In this document: piece after piece, positions 43,573-53,371 of the stretch | How positions within the stretch are numbered: the first letter of the stretch is position 1 | Layout: each line of letters opens with the position of its first letter | Source of the DNA: Protaetiibacter mangrovi | GTDB taxonomy: Bacteria; Actinomycetota; Actinomycetes; Actinomycetales; Microbacteriaceae | DNA length: 64,000 nt | Assembly: GCF_024752305.1 (NCBI RefSeq) | Contig: NZ_JANTHX010000007.1 | Span: 402,306-466,305, forward strand | Reading direction: 5' to 3' | The notes under the pieces: model-generated | What the model was told of the DNA's origin: nothing | Databases searched by the model: none | What the model saw: only the letters and a program-made list of their open reading frames with translations | Made by a program: the position numbers and the translations under genes

Positions 43573-44766
43573 TCAATCCCCGTGGGAGGTGGGCAGCGGC
43601 CAGCCCGTGTAGGCCTCGGCGAGATAGGTGCGGCCCGCCGCCGAGTCGACGACGGTGCGCAGTTCGCCGAGCTGGCGCAGTCGGTCGAAATCGCTCGACT
43701 GGGGCGCGAGGTGCAGCATGCTCGTCATCCACCAGGAGAACTGCTGCGCCTTCCAGATGCGGTCGAGGGCCTGCGCGGCGTAGCCGTCGACGAGCCGCGC
43801 ATCACCCTCGAGCAGCAGCGCGCGCAGCGCGCGGGCGAGCAGCACGACGTCGGCGATCGCCAGGTTCATGCCCTTGGCTCCCGTCGGCGGCACGGTGTGT
43901 GCGGCGTCGCCGACGAGGGCGGCACGTCCGTTCCGCAGCTCGTGGGCCACGAAGCTGCGGAAGCGCAGCACGTCGCGCTGGAAGATCGGGCCCTCGTGGA
44001 GGGTGGTGCCCGGCACGCGGGACTGCAGGGTGTCCCAGATCTCGGCCTCCGACAGCGCGTCCGGGTCGGCCTCCGGGTCGCACTGGAAGTACATGCGCTG
44101 CACCTCGGGGCTCCGCTGGCTGACCAGCGCGAAGCCGTTCTCGGAGTTCGAGTAGATGAGCTCGTCGGCGCTCGGCGGCGCCTCGCAGAGGATGCCGAAC
44201 CAGGCGAACGGGTACTCGCGGAAGTAGCCGCCGGTCTGCGAACCGGTGACGGCGGCACGCACGACGCTGCGCGATCCGTCCGCGCCGACCACGAAGTCGG
44301 CGTCGACCACGAGCTGCTCGCCCCCGGCGTCGACCGCGACGACGCGCGGCCGGTCGGTGTCGACGCCCTCGACGTGGTCGGCGGTCGTCTCGAAGCGGAT
44401 GTCCTGCCCGGCACCGAGCCGCAGCGCCAGCAGGTCGATCAGCACCTCGTGCTGCGGGTACAGCCAGACGCTGCGGCCGACGAGCGCCGCGAAGTCGATG
44501 CGGTGCCCCTCCCCCGCGAACCGCAGCTCGACGCCGTCGTGGCGGTGCCCCACGGTGTCGACACGGGTGCCCGGGTCGAGGGCGCGCAGCAGCTCGACGG
44601 TGCCCTGCTCGAGGATGCCCGCGCGGATCGTGGTCTCGATCTGCTCGCGGGTGCGGGAGTCGAGGATCACCGAGTCGATGCCGGCGTCGGCCAGCAGCTG
44701 CGAGAGCACGAGGCCGGCGGGACCGGCGCCGACGATGGCGACGCGGGTGCGGAGGGTGTCGGACAT
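43573..44766 (-). CDS. pobA: 4-hydroxybenzoate 3-monooxygenase
   Basis: FAD-dependent para-hydroxylase turning 4-hydroxybenzoate into protocatechuate with NAD(P)H and O2. It is 397 aa, close to the 394 of pseudomonad PobA. Markers are VAIVGAGPAGLVLSQLLADAGI (GxGxxG at 13-18), RAGILEQGTVELL, DFVVGADGSRS and GDAAHTVPPTGAKGMNLAIAD. It lies alone on the minus strand, convergent with marR, and has a candidate IclR site at 44829-44849. Its product feeds pcaHG at 45745. Confidence 0.95.
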   Translation of the reverse strand: MSDTLRTRVAIVGAGPAGLVLSQLLADAGIDSVILDSRTREQIETTIRAGILEQGTVELLRALDPGTRVDTVGHRHDGVELRFAGEGHRIDFAALVGRSVWLYPQHEVLIDLLALRLGAGQDIRFETTADHVEGVDTDRPRVVAVDAGGEQLVVDADFVVGADGSRSVVRAAVTGSQTGGYFREYPFAWFGILCEAPPSADELIYSNSENGFALVSQRSPEVQRMYFQCDPEADPDALSEAEIWDTLQSRVPGTTLHEGPIFQRDVLRFRSFVAHELRNGRAALVGDAAHTVPPTGAKGMNLAIADVVLLARALRALLLEGDARLVDGYAAQALDRIWKAQQFSWWMTSMLHLAPQSSDFDRLRQLGELRTVVDSAAGRTYLAEAYTGWPLPTSHGD

Positions 44767-44876: not shown

Positions 44877-45629
44877 TCAGTGGCGGTAGCCGAGGGAGCG
44901 CTCGATGTCGCGCGCAGCACGGTGCAGCTCGACGATCGCGAACTCCGGCTGGGCGTCGCGGGGCAGCACCACCGAGAGCGCCGCGATCACCCGCCCCGTC
45001 TCATCCCGGATCGGCACGGCGATCCCGGTCGCCACCTCCTCGATGAACCCCGGGGCGACCGCGTGGCCGAGCGTGCGGATCTCGGCGAGCTTGCGCCGAA
45101 CGGCGGCCGGGTCGGTGAGGGTCGCCGCGGTGAGCGGATGCAGCGGGGCCGCGAGCACGCGTTCCTGCAGTTCGCGGTCGCCGAAGGCGAGCAGCACCAG
45201 GCCCGAACTGGAGGCGTGCAGCGGCAGCCGGCCCGCGATCCGGGTGACGTTGGAGCCGCTGGCGGGGCTGCTGAGGCGTTCGAGGAAGAGCGCCTCGTCC
45301 TGTTCGAGGATGGCGAGCTGGGTGTGCTCGCGCACGCGCGACTGCACGCGCTCCATGAACGGCAGCGCCGCCTGCCGGAGACGCAGCGCCCGGGAGGAGC
45401 GGGTGGCCAGCTCCCACAGGCGCATGCCGATGCGCACCCGGCGGTCCTCGTCGCGCTCGAGCAGACCGGCCTCGACGAGCTCGCCGACGATGCGGTGCGC
45501 CGAGGAGCTCGGCAACCCCGCCCGTCGCCCGATCTCCGCCGTCGTCTGCACGGTGCGGGTGGGGGTGAAGGTCTCGAGCACGCGCACGAGCCGGTCGGTC
45601 ACCGAGTCGCCGGAGGTCGAGTTCGCCAC
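44877..45629 (-). CDS. IclR-family regulator of the pob/pca genes
   Basis: 250 aa. The N-terminal winged helix (about 8-70) contains TTAEIGRRAGLPSSSAHRIVGELVEAGLLERDED, and a GAF-like effector domain follows (about 80-250) with IGMRLWELATRSSRALRLRQAALPFMERV. The GTG at 45629 is a conservative choice; an upstream ATG would add about nine residues. Its position between pobA and pcaH is that of PcaR/PcaU/PobR-like regulators, which respond to 3-oxoadipate, protocatechuate or 4-hydroxybenzoate. Matching dyads precede pobA and this gene. Confidence 0.9.
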   Translation of the reverse strand: MANSTSGDSVTDRLVRVLETFTPTRTVQTTAEIGRRAGLPSSSAHRIVGELVEAGLLERDEDRRVRIGMRLWELATRSSRALRLRQAALPFMERVQSRVREHTQLAILEQDEALFLERLSSPASGSNVTRIAGRLPLHASSSGLVLLAFGDRELQERVLAAPLHPLTAATLTDPAAVRRKLAEIRTLGHAVAPGFIEEVATGIAVPIRDETGRVIAALSVVLPRDAQPEFAIVELHRAARDIERSLGYRH

Positions 45630-45655
45630 GGGCCCAGGATGCCACAGCGGCATCC

Positions 45656-45679
45656 GATTCCCATTCAGCGGGAACGATC
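45656..45679. promoter_or_regulatory. Putative IclR operator between the regulator and pcaH
   Basis: GATTCCC (45656-45662) and GGGAACGATC (45670-45679) form an imperfect dyad similar to the pobA-proximal site at 44829-44849. It lies between the divergent IclR gene and pcaH. Confidence 0.45.
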
Positions 45680-45744
45680 TCGCGGGGACGGAGGCCAGGG
45701 CCGACGATGGAGCGACCGCATCCGTGTGGCGTCGAAGGGGACCC

Positions 45745-46554
45745 ATGACCGACATCGCCGCAGCGCCCGAGAGCCTGCTCGCCGCGCCCGACCAGGCGTC
45801 GCAGCGCGAGATCACGCGGGAGATCACCGAGCTGCACGCCGCCTACCGCACGCGGGAAGGCGCGGGCGAGACGCTGCACGCCACGATGCACGACTTCCCG
45901 CCGTACCGCTCCAGCATCCTGCGCCACCCCACCAAGAATCCGAAGCTCGTCGACCCCGAGACGATCGAGCTGTTCTCGCCCGCCTTCGGCCAGCGCGACG
46001 TCGCGAAGATCGAGTCCGACCTGACGCTGCAGCACGCCGGCGAACCGCTCGGCGAGCGCATCACCGTGCGCGGGCGGCTGCTCGACTCCTGGGGTCGCCC
46101 GCTCGCGAATCAGCTCGTCGAGATCTGGCAGGCGAACTCGGCCGGCCGCTACATCCACCAACGCGACCAGCATCCGGCGCCCCTCGACCCCAACTTCACG
46201 GGCGCGGGCCGCACGGTCACCGACGACGCGGGCGAGTACCTCTTCACGACCATCAAGCCCGGGCCCTACCCGTGGAAGAACCACGTCAACGCCTGGCGGC
46301 CCGCCCACATCCACTTCTCGGTGTTCGGCACCTCGTTCACGCAGCGGCTCGTCACCCAGATGTACTTCCCCGGCGACCCGCTGTTCGCGCTCGATCCCAT
46401 CTACCAGTCGATCCACCGCCAGACGGACCGCGACAACCTGGTGAGCGCCTACGACCACGACCTGACGGTGCCCGAGTTCTCGATGGGCTACCGCTTCGAC
46501 ATCGTCGTCGACGGCCCGGATGCCACCTGGACCGAGGGCGAGGAGGAGCACTGA
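45745..46554 (+). CDS. pcaH: Protocatechuate 3,4-dioxygenase beta subunit
   Basis: Intradiol ring-cleavage subunit carrying the Fe(III). It is 269 aa. Ligands are Tyr136 (GRYIHQRDQ), Tyr175 (PGPYPWKNH), His188 and His190 (RPAHIHFSVFG), with spacings of 39, 13 and 2 exactly as in the reference enzyme. Start ATG 45745 follows AAGGGG. The stop overlaps pcaG by one base. It converts protocatechuate to 3-carboxy-cis,cis-muconate together with pcaG. Confidence 0.96.
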   Translation: MTDIAAAPESLLAAPDQASQREITREITELHAAYRTREGAGETLHATMHDFPPYRSSILRHPTKNPKLVDPETIELFSPAFGQRDVAKIESDLTLQHAGEPLGERITVRGRLLDSWGRPLANQLVEIWQANSAGRYIHQRDQHPAPLDPNFTGAGRTVTDDAGEYLFTTIKPGPYPWKNHVNAWRPAHIHFSVFGTSFTQRLVTQMYFPGDPLFALDPIYQSIHRQTDRDNLVSAYDHDLTVPEFSMGYRFDIVVDGPDATWTEGEEEH

Positions 46555-47117
46555 TGGGCGCGCCGCGGAAGACCCACGCCCCCTCGGCCGGCCAGACGGT
46601 CGGCCCGTTCTTCGCCTTCGGGCTCGCGTACCCGAAGATGCACGAGGTGGTGTTCCCGCACTCCGCAGGCGCCATCGTGCTCGGCGGCACGGTGTTCGAC
46701 GGGGCGGGAGCGCCGATCCCGGATGCGATCGTCGAGATCTGGGGTGCGGATGCCGACGGCTCGGTTGCCCGGGCACGCGGGGCGCGGCGCCGCGACGACC
46801 ACAGCTTCACCGGCTTCGGGCGCGCGATGACCGACGACGAGGGGCACTACGAGTTCTGGACCCGCGAACCCGGCCCGAGCGGGTCGGGTGCGGCGCCGTT
46901 CTTCGCCGCTGTCGTGTTCGCGCGCGGGCTGCCCGACAAGCTGCACACCCGCATCTACCTCCCCTCGGATGCGGCAGTGCTCGACGCGGACCCGCTGCTC
47001 GCGTCCCTCGACGCCGACGAGCGCGCTACCCTCGTCGCGACACGCACGCCCGATGGCGGACTGCACCACGACATCCGATTGCAGGGCGAGAAGGAGACGG
47101 TCTTCCTTGCCTTCTGA
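46554..47117 (+). CDS. pcaG: Protocatechuate 3,4-dioxygenase alpha subunit
   Basis: Non-catalytic partner of PcaH, 187 aa. SAGQTVGPFFAFGLAYP near the N-terminus, IPDAIVEIWGADADG and the late LHTRIYLP region are typical. Iron ligands are absent as expected for the alpha subunit. Its last 11 bases overlap the likely TTG start of pcaB. Confidence 0.95.
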   Translation: MGAPRKTHAPSAGQTVGPFFAFGLAYPKMHEVVFPHSAGAIVLGGTVFDGAGAPIPDAIVEIWGADADGSVARARGARRRDDHSFTGFGRAMTDDEGHYEFWTREPGPSGSGAAPFFAAVVFARGLPDKLHTRIYLPSDAAVLDADPLLASLDADERATLVATRTPDGGLHHDIRLQGEKETVFLAF

Positions 47118-48427
47118 CCCCTTCGACGTCGGGTTGCTGAGCCCCGTCACCGCGGGACACGACGCCGCCGTCTCGGACGACGCGGTCGTCGACGCGCTCG
47201 TCGTAGCCGAGGTCGCGCTCGTGCGCGCACTCGCCTCGCTCGGCGCGGTAGACGGCACCGTCGCCGACGCCGTCGCGGACGCCCTCCGCGGCTACGGCGT
47301 GGACGCAGCCGAGCTCGCGGCCGCCGCGCCGGGTGGCGGCAACCCCGTGATCCCGCTCGTCGGCCTGCTGCGGGCGCGGGTGCCCGCCGACGCGCGCGCG
47401 TGGGTGCACCGCGGCGCCACCAGCCAGGACGTGCTCGACACGGCGCTCATGCTCGGCGCTCATGCTCGTCGCCCGGGACGCCGCGGATGCCGTGCTCGGG
47501 CAGCTGCGCGCGACCGCCGAGGCACTGACGGTCGGCGCTCGGACGCATCGCGACGTGGTCGCCGCGGCCCGCACCCTCACCCAGCACGCGGTCCCCACCA
47601 CGGTGGGGGCGCGGCTCGCCGGCTGGGTGCGCGGCGTCGACCGCGCGGCCGTCCGGCTCGAGGCGGCACGCGACGCGCTGCCGGCCCAGCTCGGCGGTGC
47701 GGCGGGCACGCTCGCGGCATCCGTCGACGAGTTCGGCGTCGGGTTCGCGGCGGCGCTTCCCGCCGCCTACGCCGCCGAGCTCGGGCTGGCCGCCCCGGAT
47801 GCCCCCTGGCACACCGCACGCTGGCCGATCACCGAGCTCGGCGATGCGCTCGTGCAGGCGCTCGACGCGCTCGGCGTGATCGCCGCCGACGTCGCGACGC
47901 TGTCGCGGCCCGAGATCGGCGAGCTCGCCGAGGGCTCGGGGGGCGGGTCGTCGGCGATGCCGCAGAAGGCGAACCCCGCCGAGTCGGTGCTCATCCGCTC
48001 GGCCGCCCTGCGTGCTCCGCAGCTCGGCGCCACCCTGCACCTGGCGGCGGCGACCGCCGTCGACGAGCGCCCCGACGGCGCCTGGCACGCCGAGTGGCCG
48101 ACGCTGCGCGAACTGCTGCGGCTCGCGCTCGGTGCCTCCGCCCACGCCGCCCACCTGGCGGCCGAGCTGCGGCTCGACCCCGCGGCGGTGCGGCGCAACC
48201 TCGAGCTGTCGGGCGGGCGCATCCTCGCCGAGCGTCTCGCGCGCGTGCTGGTGCCCCGCATCGGCGCCGAGCGCTTCGCCGAGCTGCTGACCGGCGATGC
48301 ACCGCTCGCCGACCGCATCCGGGAGCTGCCCGAGGCGGCCGACCTCGACGTCGAGGGCCTGCTCGACCCCGCGGGCTACACGGGTCTGGCGCCCGGTTTC
48401 GTCGACGAGCTCGGGGGCGACTCGTGA
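47107..48427 (+). pseudogene. pcaB: Frameshifted 3-carboxy-cis,cis-muconate cycloisomerase
   Basis: Fumarase/aspartase-fold cycloisomerase expected to lactonise 3-carboxymuconate. Reading from TTG 47107 (AAGGAG upstream) gives LPSDPFDVGLLSPVTAG, PGGGNPVIPLVG and HRGATSQDVLDTALML. The frame is then lost at a 13-bp tandem duplication (47442-47467) and resumes one frame over as LMLVARDAADAVLGQL, continuing through the signature GSSAMPQKANPAE to a stop at 48427. Without one repeat copy the protein would be 435 aa, a normal PcaB. As sequenced the product is truncated at about 120 native residues. It could be a true mutation, a reversible slippage allele or a sequencing/assembly error. Flanking pca genes are intact. 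Confidence 0.88.
47442..47467. repeat. 13-bp perfect tandem duplication inside pcaB
   Basis: GGCGCTCATGCTC occurs twice in direct succession (47442-47454 and 47455-47467). Thirteen bases shift the frame by +1. Removal of one copy restores continuous coding (DTALMLVARD), which shows that one copy is an insertion. Confidence 0.95.
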
Positions 48428-49206
48428 CCGTGCCCGCGATCGCCCTCACCGCCCCGGCCGGGCCGGACGACGCCCCGCTGCTCGTGCTCGGCCCCTCGCT
48501 CGGCACCTCGACGATCCTCTGGGAGGACGCCGTACCGGCTCTCGCCGAGCGCTATCGCGTCGTGGCCTGGGATCTGCCCGGCCACGGCACCGCCCCCGCC
48601 GCCCGCGCTCCGTTCACGGTCGCCGAGCTCGCGGATGCGGTGGCCGCTGCCGTGCCGGACGCGCAGTTCCTCTACGCGGGCGTCTCGCTCGGCGGGGCCA
48701 CCGGTCTCGAGCTGCTGCTGCGGCATCCGGACCGGGTACGAGCCGCGGCGATCCTCGCCTCGGGGGCGCAGATCGGCGACCCGACCGCATGGCACGAGCG
48801 CGCCGCGCAGGTGCGCGCCCAGAGCACCTCGAGCGTCATCGTCGGCTCCGCCCAGCGCTGGTTCGCCGACGGCTCGATGGCCCGCCGACCCGAGCTGACC
48901 GGGCGCCTACTGCACGCCCTGCAGGACGCCGACGACGAGAGTTATGCACTGTGCTGCGAAGCGCTCGCCGGCTACGACGTGCGGCCGGCGCTCGGACGCA
49001 TCCACGCCCCGGTGCTCGCGCTCTGGGGCAGACACGACCGGGTCGCCCCCGAGGCGAAGGCCGAGGAGGTCGCGGCGGGCGTCGCCGACGGCCGCGCGGT
49101 CGTCGTGGAGGACGCCGCCCACCTGCCCCCGGCCGAGCAACCGGAGGCCACCGCCCGCGCGCTGCGCGACTTCTTCGATCCCCGCACGGAAGGAACGGCC
49201 CGATGA
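48424..49206 (+). CDS. pcaD: 3-oxoadipate enol-lactonase
   Basis: Alpha/beta hydrolase of 260 aa that hydrolyses 3-oxoadipate enol-lactone to 3-oxoadipate. Nucleophile Ser88 is in YAGVSLGGATG; Asp is in WGRHDRVAP and His in AAHLPPAEQ. GTG start 48424 overlaps the pcaB stop (GTGA), so its translation may suffer if ribosomes leave pcaB early. PcaD is separate from PcaC here, unlike the fused PcaL of many rhodococci and streptomycetes. Confidence 0.93.
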   Translation: MTVPAIALTAPAGPDDAPLLVLGPSLGTSTILWEDAVPALAERYRVVAWDLPGHGTAPAARAPFTVAELADAVAAAVPDAQFLYAGVSLGGATGLELLLRHPDRVRAAAILASGAQIGDPTAWHERAAQVRAQSTSSVIVGSAQRWFADGSMARRPELTGRLLHALQDADDESYALCCEALAGYDVRPALGRIHAPVLALWGRHDRVAPEAKAEEVAAGVADGRAVVVEDAAHLPPAEQPEATARALRDFFDPRTEGTAR

Positions 49207-49616
49207 CACGACCCGACGGCGAGGGGCTGAGCGACGCCGAGCGCTACGCGCAGGGCATGACGGTGCGTCGCGCCGTGCTGTCGGATGCGCACGTCGACCG
49301 CTCGATCGCGAACACCTCCGAGCTCACCGCCGACTGGCAGGACTTCATCACGCGCGTCGCCTGGGGCGACGTGTGGTCGCGGCCGGGGCTCGACCGGCGC
49401 TCGCGCTCAGTCGCCGTGCTCAGCTCGCTCATCGCCCACGGCCACCACGAGGAGCTCGCGATGCACCTGCGCGCGGCGATCCGCAACGGCCTCACCGTCG
49501 ATGAGATCCGCGAGGTGATCCTGCAGTCGGCCATCTACTCCGGCGTGCCCGCGGCGAACTCCGCGTTCCGGATCGCCTCCGAGGTGCTCGGCGAGACCCC
49601 CGAGGAGCCCGCGTGA
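49203..49616 (+). CDS. pcaC: 4-carboxymuconolactone decarboxylase
   Basis: Decarboxylates 4-carboxymuconolactone to the 3-oxoadipate enol-lactone. It is 137 aa, an all-helical AhpD-like fold, with RSRSVAVLSSLIAHGHHEELAMHLRAAIRNGLTVDEI and QSAIYSGVPAANSAFRIA, both diagnostic. It overlaps pcaD and pcaI by four bases at each end. Confidence 0.95.
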   Translation: MTRPDGEGLSDAERYAQGMTVRRAVLSDAHVDRSIANTSELTADWQDFITRVAWGDVWSRPGLDRRSRSVAVLSSLIAHGHHEELAMHLRAAIRNGLTVDEIREVILQSAIYSGVPAANSAFRIASEVLGETPEEPA

Positions 49617-50359
49617 TCGACAAGACCGTCGCGACCGTCGCGGATGCGGTGGCCGGCATCCCGGACGGCGCGACCGTCATGATCGGCGGCTTCGGCCGCG
49701 CAGGGCAGCCCGTCGAGCTCATCGACGCCCTCATCGCGGGCGGGGCCGGTGACCTCACGATCGTCAGCAACAACGCCGGCAACGGCGACACCGGGCTCGC
49801 CGCGCTGCTCGCCGCCCGGCGGGTGCGGCGCATCATCTGCTCGTTCCCGCGCCAGCACGACTCCTGGGTGTTCGACGGCCTCTACCGGGCGGGCGAGATC
49901 GAGCTCGAGCTCGTGCCGCAGGGCAACCTGGCCGAACGCATCCGGGCCGCCGGCGCCGGCATCGGCGCCTTCTTCTCGCCCACCGGGGTGGGCACCGAGC
50001 TCGCCGCAGGCAAGGAGGAGCGGGTGATCGAGGGGCGCCGCTACGTGCTCGAATACCCGATCCGCGCCGACGTGGCGCTCGTCTCGGCGCTCAGAGCCGA
50101 CCGCTGGGGCAACCTCGTCTACCGCGAGACGGCCCGCAACTTCGGCCCCGTCATGGCGTCCGCCGCGACGACGACGATCGTGCAGGTCGACGAGGTGGTG
50201 CCGCTCGGCGCGCTCGACCCGGAGACGGTCGTGACGCCCGGGCTCTACGTCGACCGCGTCGTCGCGGTCGGCTCGCGCCCGTGGCTCGACGGTGGGGAGT
50301 TCGTCGGCGGCGTGGACGTCGAGGGGCGCCCGCTCGAGACCCCGGAGGCCGCGCGATGA
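49613..50359 (+). CDS. pcaI: 3-oxoadipate CoA-transferase subunit A
   Basis: Alpha subunit of the class I transferase moving CoA from succinyl-CoA to 3-oxoadipate. It is 248 aa with GTG start 49613. The CoA-binding glycine loop is MIGGFGRAGQP, followed by NNAGNGDTGLAALL and FFSPTGVGTELAAGKEER. It overlaps pcaC and pcaJ. Confidence 0.93.
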   Translation: MIDKTVATVADAVAGIPDGATVMIGGFGRAGQPVELIDALIAGGAGDLTIVSNNAGNGDTGLAALLAARRVRRIICSFPRQHDSWVFDGLYRAGEIELELVPQGNLAERIRAAGAGIGAFFSPTGVGTELAAGKEERVIEGRRYVLEYPIRADVALVSALRADRWGNLVYRETARNFGPVMASAATTTIVQVDEVVPLGALDPETVVTPGLYVDRVVAVGSRPWLDGGEFVGGVDVEGRPLETPEAAR

Positions 50360-51010: not shown

Positions 51011-52180
51011 ATGGCCGCCACCGTGATCTACGACGCCGTGCGCACACCGTTCGGCCGCGCGGGCGGAGCGCTCGCCGGGGTGCGGCCCGACGACCTCGCC
51101 GCGGTCGTGATGCGGGCCACCGTCGACCGGACGGGCCTCGACCCCGCGCGCATCGACGACGTGATCTTCGGCGACGCCAACCAGGCGGGCGAGGACAACC
51201 GCGACGTCGCGCGCTTCGGCGCGCTGCTCGCGGGCTTCCCGACGAGCGTTCCGGGTGTCACGGTCAACCGGCTGTGCGGCTCGTCGGTCGAGGCGGTCAT
51301 CCAGGGCTCCCGCGCGATCGAGGCCGGCGACGCCGACCTCGTGCTCGCGGGCGGCGTGGAGTCGATGAGCCGAGGCCCGTTCATCGTCGAGAAGTCGCCG
51401 AAGCCGTTCCCGGCATCCGGCAACCCGACGATGTGGAACAGCTCCATCGGCTGGCGGATGGTCAACCCGGCGTTCCCGAAACCGTGGACGATCTCGAACG
51501 GCGAGTCGGCGCAGAAGCTCGCCGACATCTACGGGATCACGCGTGAGCAGCAGGACGCGTTCGCACTGCGCAGCCACCACCTGGCCGCCGCGGCGTGGGC
51601 CGAGGGGGTCTTCGCCGACGAGATCGTGCAGGTGCCGGGGGTCGAACTGCCCCGCGACGAGGGCATCCGCGACGACACCACCCTCGAGAAGCTCGGCAGT
51701 CTGAAGCCGCTGTTCGCCGCGGACGGCAGCGTCACGGCGGGCAACTCGTCCCCCATCAACGACGGCGCCTCGGCGGTGCTGCTCGGCCGGGAGGGGGCGC
51801 TCGACGCCGAGCCGCTCGCCCGAATCACAGGCCGCGGCGTTTTCGGGAACGACCCGGATGTGTTCGGCGTCGCGCCGGTCGAGGCGGCGAACCGCGCCCT
51901 CGCGCGCGCCGGCCGCAGCTGGGCCGATGTCGATGTGGTCGAGCTCAACGAGGCCTTCGCCTCGCAGAGCCTCGCCTGCCTGAGGCTCTGGACCGAACTC
52001 GACCCCGAGCGCGTCAACGTGCACGGCGGCGCGATCGCGATCGGCCACCCGCTCGGGGCCTCCGGCGGACGCATCATCGCCCGCGCCGCCTACGCGCTCG
52101 CCCGCCGCGGGGGCGGGGTCGCGGTCGCCGCCATCTGCATCGGCGTCGGACAGGGCCTCGCGGTCGTGCTCGAGCGCTGA
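51011..52180 (+). CDS. pcaF: 3-oxoadipyl-CoA thiolase
   Basis: Cleaves 3-oxoadipyl-CoA with CoA to succinyl-CoA and acetyl-CoA. It is 389 aa, slightly shorter than the usual 400. Catalytic Cys89 (NRLCGSS), His in GHPLGASG and the second Cys in AAICIGVGQG are present, and NEAFASQSL is conserved. It ends the pca operon at a stem-loop shared with the convergent thiolase gene. Confidence 0.94.
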   Translation: MAATVIYDAVRTPFGRAGGALAGVRPDDLAAVVMRATVDRTGLDPARIDDVIFGDANQAGEDNRDVARFGALLAGFPTSVPGVTVNRLCGSSVEAVIQGSRAIEAGDADLVLAGGVESMSRGPFIVEKSPKPFPASGNPTMWNSSIGWRMVNPAFPKPWTISNGESAQKLADIYGITREQQDAFALRSHHLAAAAWAEGVFADEIVQVPGVELPRDEGIRDDTTLEKLGSLKPLFAADGSVTAGNSSPINDGASAVLLGREGALDAEPLARITGRGVFGNDPDVFGVAPVEAANRALARAGRSWADVDVVELNEAFASQSLACLRLWTELDPERVNVHGGAIAIGHPLGASGGRIIARAAYALARRGGGVAVAAICIGVGQGLAVVLER

Positions 52181-52190
52181 GCCTCAGCGC
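52174..52190. terminator. Stem-loop at convergent pcaF/thiolase stops
   Basis: GCGCTGA-gcc-TCAGCGC, a perfect 7-bp inverted repeat whose arms contain the stop codons of both convergent genes. There is no U-tract. Likely bidirectional terminator or transcription-collision point. Confidence 0.5.
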
Positions 52191-53371
52191 GTGAGGAGGA
52201 GCGCCTCGCCCTGACCGCCCCCGCCGCACAGCGCGACGGCTGCGGTGCCGCCGCCACGGCGCACCAGCTCGTGCACCGCGTGCACGACGAGCCGGTTGCC
52301 GCTCGCGCCGACGGGGTGGCCGAGCGCGATCGCTCCGCCGTGGATGTTCACGACGTCGTCGGCGAGACCCAGCTCGGCCTGCGAGCGCACGACCACGGCG
52401 GCGAACGCCTCGTTGATCTCGACGAGGTCGAGGTCGGCCGGGGTGATGCCCGCTCGGGCGCAGGCCTGCTCGATGGCGCGCGCCGGCTGGGCGTGCAGAG
52501 AGTTGTCGGGGCCGGCGACCTGGCCGACGGCGCCGAGCGTCGCCAGCACGTCCCACCCCTCGGATGCCGCGCGGGCGCGCGTGGTGAGCACGACGGCGGA
52601 GGCGCCGTCCGAGATCTGCGAGGAGTTGCCCGCCGTGATGGTGCCGCCCTCGGCGAAGGCGGGCCGGAGTCCGGCCAGCCGCTCCTCGCTCGTGTCGGGA
52701 CGCACCCCCTCGTCGGCGGTGACGACGACCGGGTCGCCCGTGCGCTGCGGGATCTCGATCGACACGAGTTCGGCGTCGAAGACCCCGTCGCGCTGCGCCG
52801 CGGCCGCCCGGCGGTGCGAACGGGCGGCGACCGCGTCCTGCGCCTCGCGGGTGATGCCGAGCTCCGGATTGCGGCGCTCCGTCGAGGCGCCCATGCTCTC
52901 GTGGTCGTAGACGTCGGTCAGGCCGTCGTGGGCGAGATGGTCGAGCACCTCGACGCTGCCGTACGACCAGCCCGCGCGGGAGCCCATCAGCAGGTGCGGC
53001 GCGCGGGTCATCGACTCCATGCCCGCGGCGACGACGACCTCGGCATCGCCCGCGCGGATCATCCGCGCGCCGTCGATGACGGCGGTGAGCCCCGAGAGGC
53101 AGACCTTGTTGATCGAGCCGGCGTGCACGTGCCAGCCGAGACCGGCGCCGAGCGCCGCCTGGCGGGCGGGGTTCTGCCCGACGCCCGCGGCGAGCACCTG
53201 CCCGACGAGCACGGCATCGACCGTCGATGCGGCGACGCCGCCCTTCTCGAGGGCGCCGCGGATCGCCGCCGACCCGAGCTGCACGGAGCTGCGCGAGCCG
53301 AGCGCACCCGAGAGGCGCCCCTGCGGGGTGCGGGCCGCCGCGACGACGACCACGTCGGTGTCGGCGCTCAT
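52184..53371 (-). CDS. Acetyl-CoA acetyltransferase
   Basis: Thiolase II of 395 aa with Cys91 (NKVCLSG), [19 protein letters not shown] and the C-terminal [11 protein letters not shown]. The last motif is the biosynthetic/acetoacetyl-CoA thiolase pattern, unlike CIGVGQG in pcaF. It overlaps the scoB-like stop (ATGA) and would thiolyse acetoacetyl-CoA made by the adjacent transferase. Confidence 0.92.

What the first reader, a model, noticed from the sequence alone, without database searches (positions are those of the whole stretch)
47442..47467. 13-bp tandem duplication knocks pcaB out of frame within an otherwise complete pca operon
GGCGCTCATGCTC is present twice in direct succession. Deleting one copy restores a 435-aa PcaB with all its signatures, so one copy is an insertion. 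The strain would be blocked at 3-carboxymuconate in the protocatechuate 3,4 route, yet pobA, pcaHG, pcaD, C, I, J and F are intact. The tandem repeat could revert by slippage or RecA-independent recombination, acting as a metabolic on/off switch. The alternatives are laboratory passage damage or an assembly error.
Basis: seen in the sequence. Interest (0 to 1): 0.72.

Follow-up and report, generated by a model that had tools for sequence, protein, structure and literature searches.

The report
Tandem duplication breaks a pcaB gene
One bacterial genome carries a fresh 13-base stutter that puts a single gene of an otherwise open aromatic-acid breakdown operon out of frame; this looks like an ordinary recent mutation, and nothing seen here shows it to be a built-in switch.

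Summary
GGCGCTCATGCTC stands twice, head to tail, at 47442-47467, the only perfect tandem duplication with a unit of 10-60 bases in the window. It lies inside pcaB, whose halves are read in different frames. In 108 of 108 relatives' loci where both halves could be placed, they share one open frame; four of these, one from the same genus, hold the same 13-mer once at this spot. A codon-usage map that uses no homology switches frame at 47455/47456; of 69 segments tested, this is the only internal one running off without a stop. The break looks fresh: 0 of 68 highly conserved positions are altered. The C half finds no second PcaB in the genome. Best reading: a recent replication-slippage duplication that nulls pcaB in the sequenced genome. 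It could revert in principle, but nothing supports an evolved switch: two copies only, and no relative's pcaB has a perfect tandem unit of 10 or more. Assembly error cannot be excluded without reads. The shifted frame stays open and runs in frame into pcaD, so translation is not cut early.

The parts
47441..47468 (+). 13-bp tandem duplication (two exact copies at 47442-47454 and 47455-47467; period-13 identity spans 47441-47468)
   Evidence: 1 place in the own genome, 0 in the 8 other genomes held for the genus at up to 3 mismatches
47107..47454 (+). pcaB 5' part, TTG start, frame of 47107
   Evidence: (TIGR02426, residues 18-117 of P0001)
47456..48427 (+). pcaB 3' part, shifted by one base; open to TGA 48425-48427; ATG 47462 lies in the second repeat copy
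47107..49206 (+). predicted read-through frame: PcaB N part, about 320 out-of-frame residues, then PcaD in frame (699 aa)
   Evidence: Abhydrolase_1 at residues 457-675
48424..49206 (+). pcaD (3-oxoadipate enol-lactonase), GTG start overlapping the pcaB stop
   Evidence: TIGR02427 E 4e-64, below its curated cut-off
49203..49616 (+). pcaC (4-carboxymuconolactone decarboxylase), ATGA overlap with pcaD
45865..46554 (+). [quoted passage not shown] start codon approximate
   Evidence: TIGR02422 E 7e-102
46554..47117 (+). pcaG (alpha subunit)
   Evidence: TIGR02423 E 3e-50
49613..50359 (+). pcaI
   Evidence: TIGR02429
50281..51009 (+). pcaJ (ORF; the coding segment begins near 50352)
   Evidence: TIGR02428
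51011..52180 (+). pcaF-like 3-oxoadipyl-CoA thiolase (below the curated PcaF cut-off)
43573..44766 (-). pobA, 4-hydroxybenzoate 3-monooxygenase
   Evidence: NF006091 E 7e-148 above its cut-off; TIGR02360 E 5e-114 below its cut-off
44877..45827 (-). IclR-type regulator of the PcaR/PcaU/PobR kind (below the curated cut-off); coding segment 44884-45627

Best explanation
A recent, private 13-bp tandem duplication, most likely made by replication slippage at a CG/CG micro-repeat, shifts pcaB by one base after about residue 117 and abolishes 3-carboxymuconate cycloisomerase in the sequenced genome. Shown: the duplication, the frame change, pcaB in one frame in all relatives' loci tested, open neighbouring genes, no second PcaB found with the C half, no sign of decay. 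Inferred: the slippage origin, loss of enzyme activity, a block at 3-carboxymuconate, and low-frequency revertibility. It is an ordinary loss-of-function mutation, not an evolved switch.
For: Two exact copies, the only perfect tandem duplication of unit 10-60 in 64 kb. 108 of 108 relatives' loci with both halves placed have them in one ORF; the loci were found with the C half alone, so a broken frame upstream would not have hidden them. Four relatives (L009 of the same genus, L042, L044, L058) hold the identical 13-mer once at this site. The codon map switches frame at 47455/47456 without using homology, and this is the only internal segment of the 69 tested that runs off without a stop. 0 of 68 columns conserved in at least 95% of relatives are changed, 31 of 31 invariant ones kept. 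One PcaB match in the own genome; four other lyase-superfamily genes are too distant to be reported by that search.
Against: No reads, so an assembly or consensus error cannot be excluded. No second genome of the same species was available. Zero changes at conserved columns is also what an intact gene shows (59 of 108 relatives), so the lack of decay does not tell a fresh mutation from an error. Loss of activity is predicted, not measured.
Confidence: 0.78

Rival explanations
1. Assembly or consensus error: the true genome has one copy and pcaB is intact.
For: Draft assembly in 16 contigs. All 108 relatives' loci are in one frame and the own pcaB shows no decay. Indels in repetitive sequence can be assembly errors (PMC8339072, passage).
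Against: A clean 13-base unit is not a usual base-calling error (general knowledge). No other frame break was detected in the window (2 of 69 segments without a stop, the other being 35 bases at the window edge). The genome is 99.69% complete with 0.04% contamination and holds a full-length 16S match, as an isolate assembly would (inference). No one-copy version of the site exists elsewhere in the assembly at up to 2 mismatches.
Confidence: 0.14
2. Reversible switch: slippage between the copies turns pcaB on and off in the population and this is selected.
For: Tandem duplications inside pneumococcal capsule genes are reported as phase variation in titles cited by PMC4022640, which puts the expected reversion at 1e-5 or less for insertions of up to 9 bp (passages).
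Against: 108 of 108 relatives' loci are in one frame, none of these pcaB genes has a perfect tandem unit of 10 or more, and the 44 units of 7-9 bases found in them (21 not divisible by three) sit in open frames. Two copies only; repeat-based phase-variable loci are recognised by hypermutable repeat numbers (PMC11868660, passage). In Xenorhabdus, lrp mutants included tandem duplications of 26-116 bp; of eight mutants tested none reverted genetically and the authors rejected phase variation; I did not see whether the duplications were among the eight (PMC6786866, passages).
Confidence: 0.05
3. PcaB is still made by ribosomal frameshifting, hopping, or as two polypeptides with re-initiation at ATG 47462.
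For: No decay in the C part; ATG 47462 in the second copy opens a 321-aa frame.
Against: No homopolymer run at the site and no stable folding: 195 of 200 shuffles fold at least as well as the DNA strand, z +1.76 (RNA not folded). The N frame has no stop before 49206, so re-initiation coupled to termination is not available. A fresh mutation explains the lack of decay as well.
Confidence: 0.03

Closest known systems
Spontaneous short sequence duplications in pneumococcal capsule genes (type 3 locus, cap8E, tts; Waite et al. 2001, 2003, seen only as citations and titles in PMC4022640)
   Same: A short duplication inside a coding gene that knocks out function and can in principle revert
   Different: Those titles report phase variation; here there is one assembly, a catabolic gene and no reversion data
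Reversible gene silencing by frameshift indels (M. tuberculosis, PMC8339072; abstract and passages)
   Same: A frame-shifting indel in a gene, restorable by a second indel
   Different: That study rests on 5977 genomes with restored scars; here one genome and no scar
pcaB null mutants (R. ruber Chol-4 with pcaG and pcaB deleted does not grow on protocatechuate, PMC6498646; passage)
   Same: Loss of the same enzyme in an actinobacterial pca cluster
   Different: Engineered deletion of pcaG and pcaB, as described in the passage, against a spontaneous duplication in pcaB alone

Membership tests
Slippage-type tandem duplication frameshift mutation | Two adjacent exact copies whose unit is not a multiple of three, inside a coding gene | tested here: met
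Slippage-type tandem duplication frameshift mutation | Ancestral state has one copy | tested here: met
   108 of 108 relatives' loci in one frame; same 13-mer once in L009, L042, L044, L058
Phase-variable contingency locus | Repeat kept at the same site in relatives, with variable copy number | tested here: not met
   genus search with up to 3 mismatches: 1 of 9 genomes, the own one
Phase-variable contingency locus | Measured high-frequency switching or mixed states | not testable with these tools
   needs reads or cultures
[quoted passage not shown]
   both halves match TIGR02426, each below the full-length cut-off as expected for a part (the C half scores slightly better with nitrosuccinate lyase NF052556, also far below that cut-off); 31 of 31 invariant columns kept
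[quoted passage not shown]

The most novel reading that the evidence does not exclude
Natural populations of this bacterium keep a mixture of one- and two-copy pcaB cells, so that the beta-ketoadipate route flickers on and off by slippage, with the shifted frame fusing the PcaB N part to PcaD so that the downstream genes stay translated in the off state.
Probability: 0.03. Interest if true: 0.6.

Novelty: new member of a known kind. Interest (0 to 1): 0.2.

Why it matters
Mainly for annotation and metabolic modelling: a genome-based call of growth on protocatechuate would be wrong for this strain if the duplication is real. The case shows how codon usage, relatives and conserved positions together mark a frameshift as fresh. 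It would matter more only if one- and two-copy cells were found to coexist.

Tried and rejected
Second frameshift in the operon: NCBIfam's fused PcaDC model spans pcaD and pcaC here, which raised the question whether a fused gene had been split by another frameshift. In one search, of 114 loci, 108 had both parts: 56 separate (the own locus L001 among them) and 52 fused; 6 lacked one part. All 31 named loci L031-L061 have separate genes, and pcaD and pcaC overlap by ATGA, so this is a real two-gene arrangement.

Second PcaB in the genome: none at E 0.001 with the C half; PF00206 gives four other lyases besides the pcaB locus.

Structure at the site as a slippage aid: none better than shuffles (DNA parameters).

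Base rate: 5 perfect tandem duplications with a unit of 13 or more not divisible by three in 1,004,493 bases of relatives' loci. By the codon map four of the five fall in non-coding stretches and one (L088) straddles a junction between two coding segments.

Literature, ten searches. Toxicity of accumulated carboxymuconate in pcaB-less Acinetobacter is recalled from the work of Ornston's group; searches listed no paper recognisable as dealing with it, and those listed were not opened. Of the searches on tandem duplication and switching, one search returned none, searches returned lists from which I read passages of four papers, and one paper seen in the listing only. One search (pcaB and pseudogene) gave six papers; I read passages of two, neither of which showed a pcaB pseudogene.

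Weak or failed steps: one search compared distances at the site in 108 rows, the two own rows included: 86 at zero, the two own at +13, and 20 others. Eighteen of the 20 are large false offsets from loci held in reverse; the other two, L028 (-36) and L056 (-12), are multiples of three from gapped or short alignments. All 20 have both halves in one ORF in the oriented test, which replaces it. The gene map timed out and was rewritten. Seven coding segments of 73 bases or less, and the non-coding ones, were left out, and that test would miss breaks with a stop within 60 bases.

Full report
What is there. The window holds GGCGCTCATGCTC twice in direct succession at 47442-47467; with one matching base on either side the period-13 array is 47441-47468. 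It is the only perfect tandem duplication with a unit of 10-60 bases in 64 kb. In 30 simulated sequences of the same length and dinucleotide usage none had a unit of 13 or more, and 11 with units of 10-12 were seen in all.

It lies in pcaB. The gene begins at TTG 47107, inside the end of pcaG (stop 47115-47117), and ends at TGA 48425-48427, inside the start of pcaD (GTG 48424). The part before the repeat matches TIGR02426 at E 2.1e-26 and the part after it at E 4.6e-72, in frames one base apart. Codon-position G+C shifts by one phase across the repeat. A codon-usage map made without homology changes frame between 47455 and 47456. Of 69 coding segments tested, 2 lack a stop near their end: this one and 35 bases at the left edge of the window (seven coding segments of 73 bases or less and the non-coding stretches were not tested).

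Relatives. The scans used the C half alone, so a frame broken upstream would not have hidden a relative. In 110 both halves could be placed: two are the own locus fetched twice (L001, L124) and have the halves in different frames; the other 108 have both in one ORF. The four without a placed N half are L053, where the contig begins inside the gene, and L111, L112 and L114, at 28-34% identity to the C half and so probably other lyases. Some genomes may occur in both collections, so 108 counts loci, not independent species. Four loci (L009 of the same genus, L042, L044, L058) carry the same 13-mer once at this very site, so the two-copy state is the derived one. Of the nine genomes held for the genus, the own and three others have a PcaB match with E below 1e-50; the doubled unit occurs in 1 of 9, the own.

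Age. Against the 108 relatives, 31 of 31 invariant columns and 68 of 68 columns conserved in at least 95% of rows are unchanged in the two halves; in leave-one-out controls 59 of 108 relatives also show zero changes, mean 1.27, maximum 7. At 90% conservation 102 of 103 are kept. By the rule of three, at most about 4% of these positions have changed, so the gene was lost recently or is not lost at all. This cannot separate a fresh mutation from an assembly error.

Consequence. The own genome has one match to the PcaB C half and four other members of the lyase superfamily (PF00206), none reported by the PcaB search. pobA, pcaH, pcaG, pcaD, pcaC, pcaI, pcaJ and a pcaF-like gene are open and match their families, PcaD and PcaF below the curated equivalog cut-offs. 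The predicted block is at 3-carboxymuconate. In R. ruber Chol-4, mutants with pcaG and pcaB deleted did not grow on protocatechuate (PMC6498646, passage seen). That accumulated carboxymuconate is toxic in Acinetobacter is recalled, not found in my searches. The shifted frame has no stop before 49206 and is the frame of pcaD, so a ribosome that starts at pcaB would make a 699-residue product ending in a PcaD domain. Translation is thus not cut off early, and strong polar effects on the downstream genes are less likely than with a stop codon; this is inference.

How it arose. The one-copy site, as seen in relative L058, reads CGGCGC...CGTCGC 13 bases apart, so slippage at the shared CG would give exactly this duplication (inference). 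The site has no unusual folding as DNA.

Switch or not. A two-copy 13-bp duplication can revert by the same route. PMC4022640 (passages) expects at most about 1e-5 for insertions of up to 9 bp in pneumococcal capsule genes, citing Waite et al. In Xenorhabdus, lrp mutants included tandem duplications of 26-116 bp; among eight mutants tested no genetic reversion was seen and the authors rejected phase variation (PMC6786866, passages; whether the duplications were among the eight I did not see). Nothing here points to a maintained switch: no relative's pcaB among the 108 has a perfect tandem unit of 10 or more, and the 44 units of 7-9 bases in them, 21 of these not divisible by three, lie in open frames.

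Verdict. Real in the assembly, and most likely a real, recent and ordinary loss-of-function mutation; assembly error is the main rival and needs reads. Interest is low.

Noticed in passing
47107-49206: The frame left open by the duplication runs without a stop into pcaD in frame, predicting a PcaB(N)-out-of-frame-PcaD product of 699 aa; in this G+C-rich operon a frame shift need not end translation.
   Followed up: partly
48424-49616: pcaD and pcaC are separate, overlapping genes here and in the 31 named loci L031-L061, but fused in 52 of the 108 loci (own included) that hold both.
   Followed up: yes
pcaB of L062, L069, L070, L073, L079, L087, L088, L095, L106: Eight Streptomyces loci and one Nonomuraea locus share an 8-base perfect tandem repeat (CACCGCGA, in L095 CACCGTGA) inside pcaB, at another place than the window's duplication and in an open frame; probably a by-product of conserved protein sequence and codon usage.
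   Followed up: no
L099, L114, L046, L083, L088: Five other perfect tandem duplications with a unit of 13-20 not divisible by three in about 1 Mb of relatives' DNA; four in non-coding stretches and one at a junction of two coding segments.
   Followed up: partly
52184-53371 (-) and 51011-52180 (+): Two thiolase genes end to end at the end of the pca operon; the first on the + strand is PcaF-like, the other closer to acetyl-CoA acetyltransferases.
   Followed up: no
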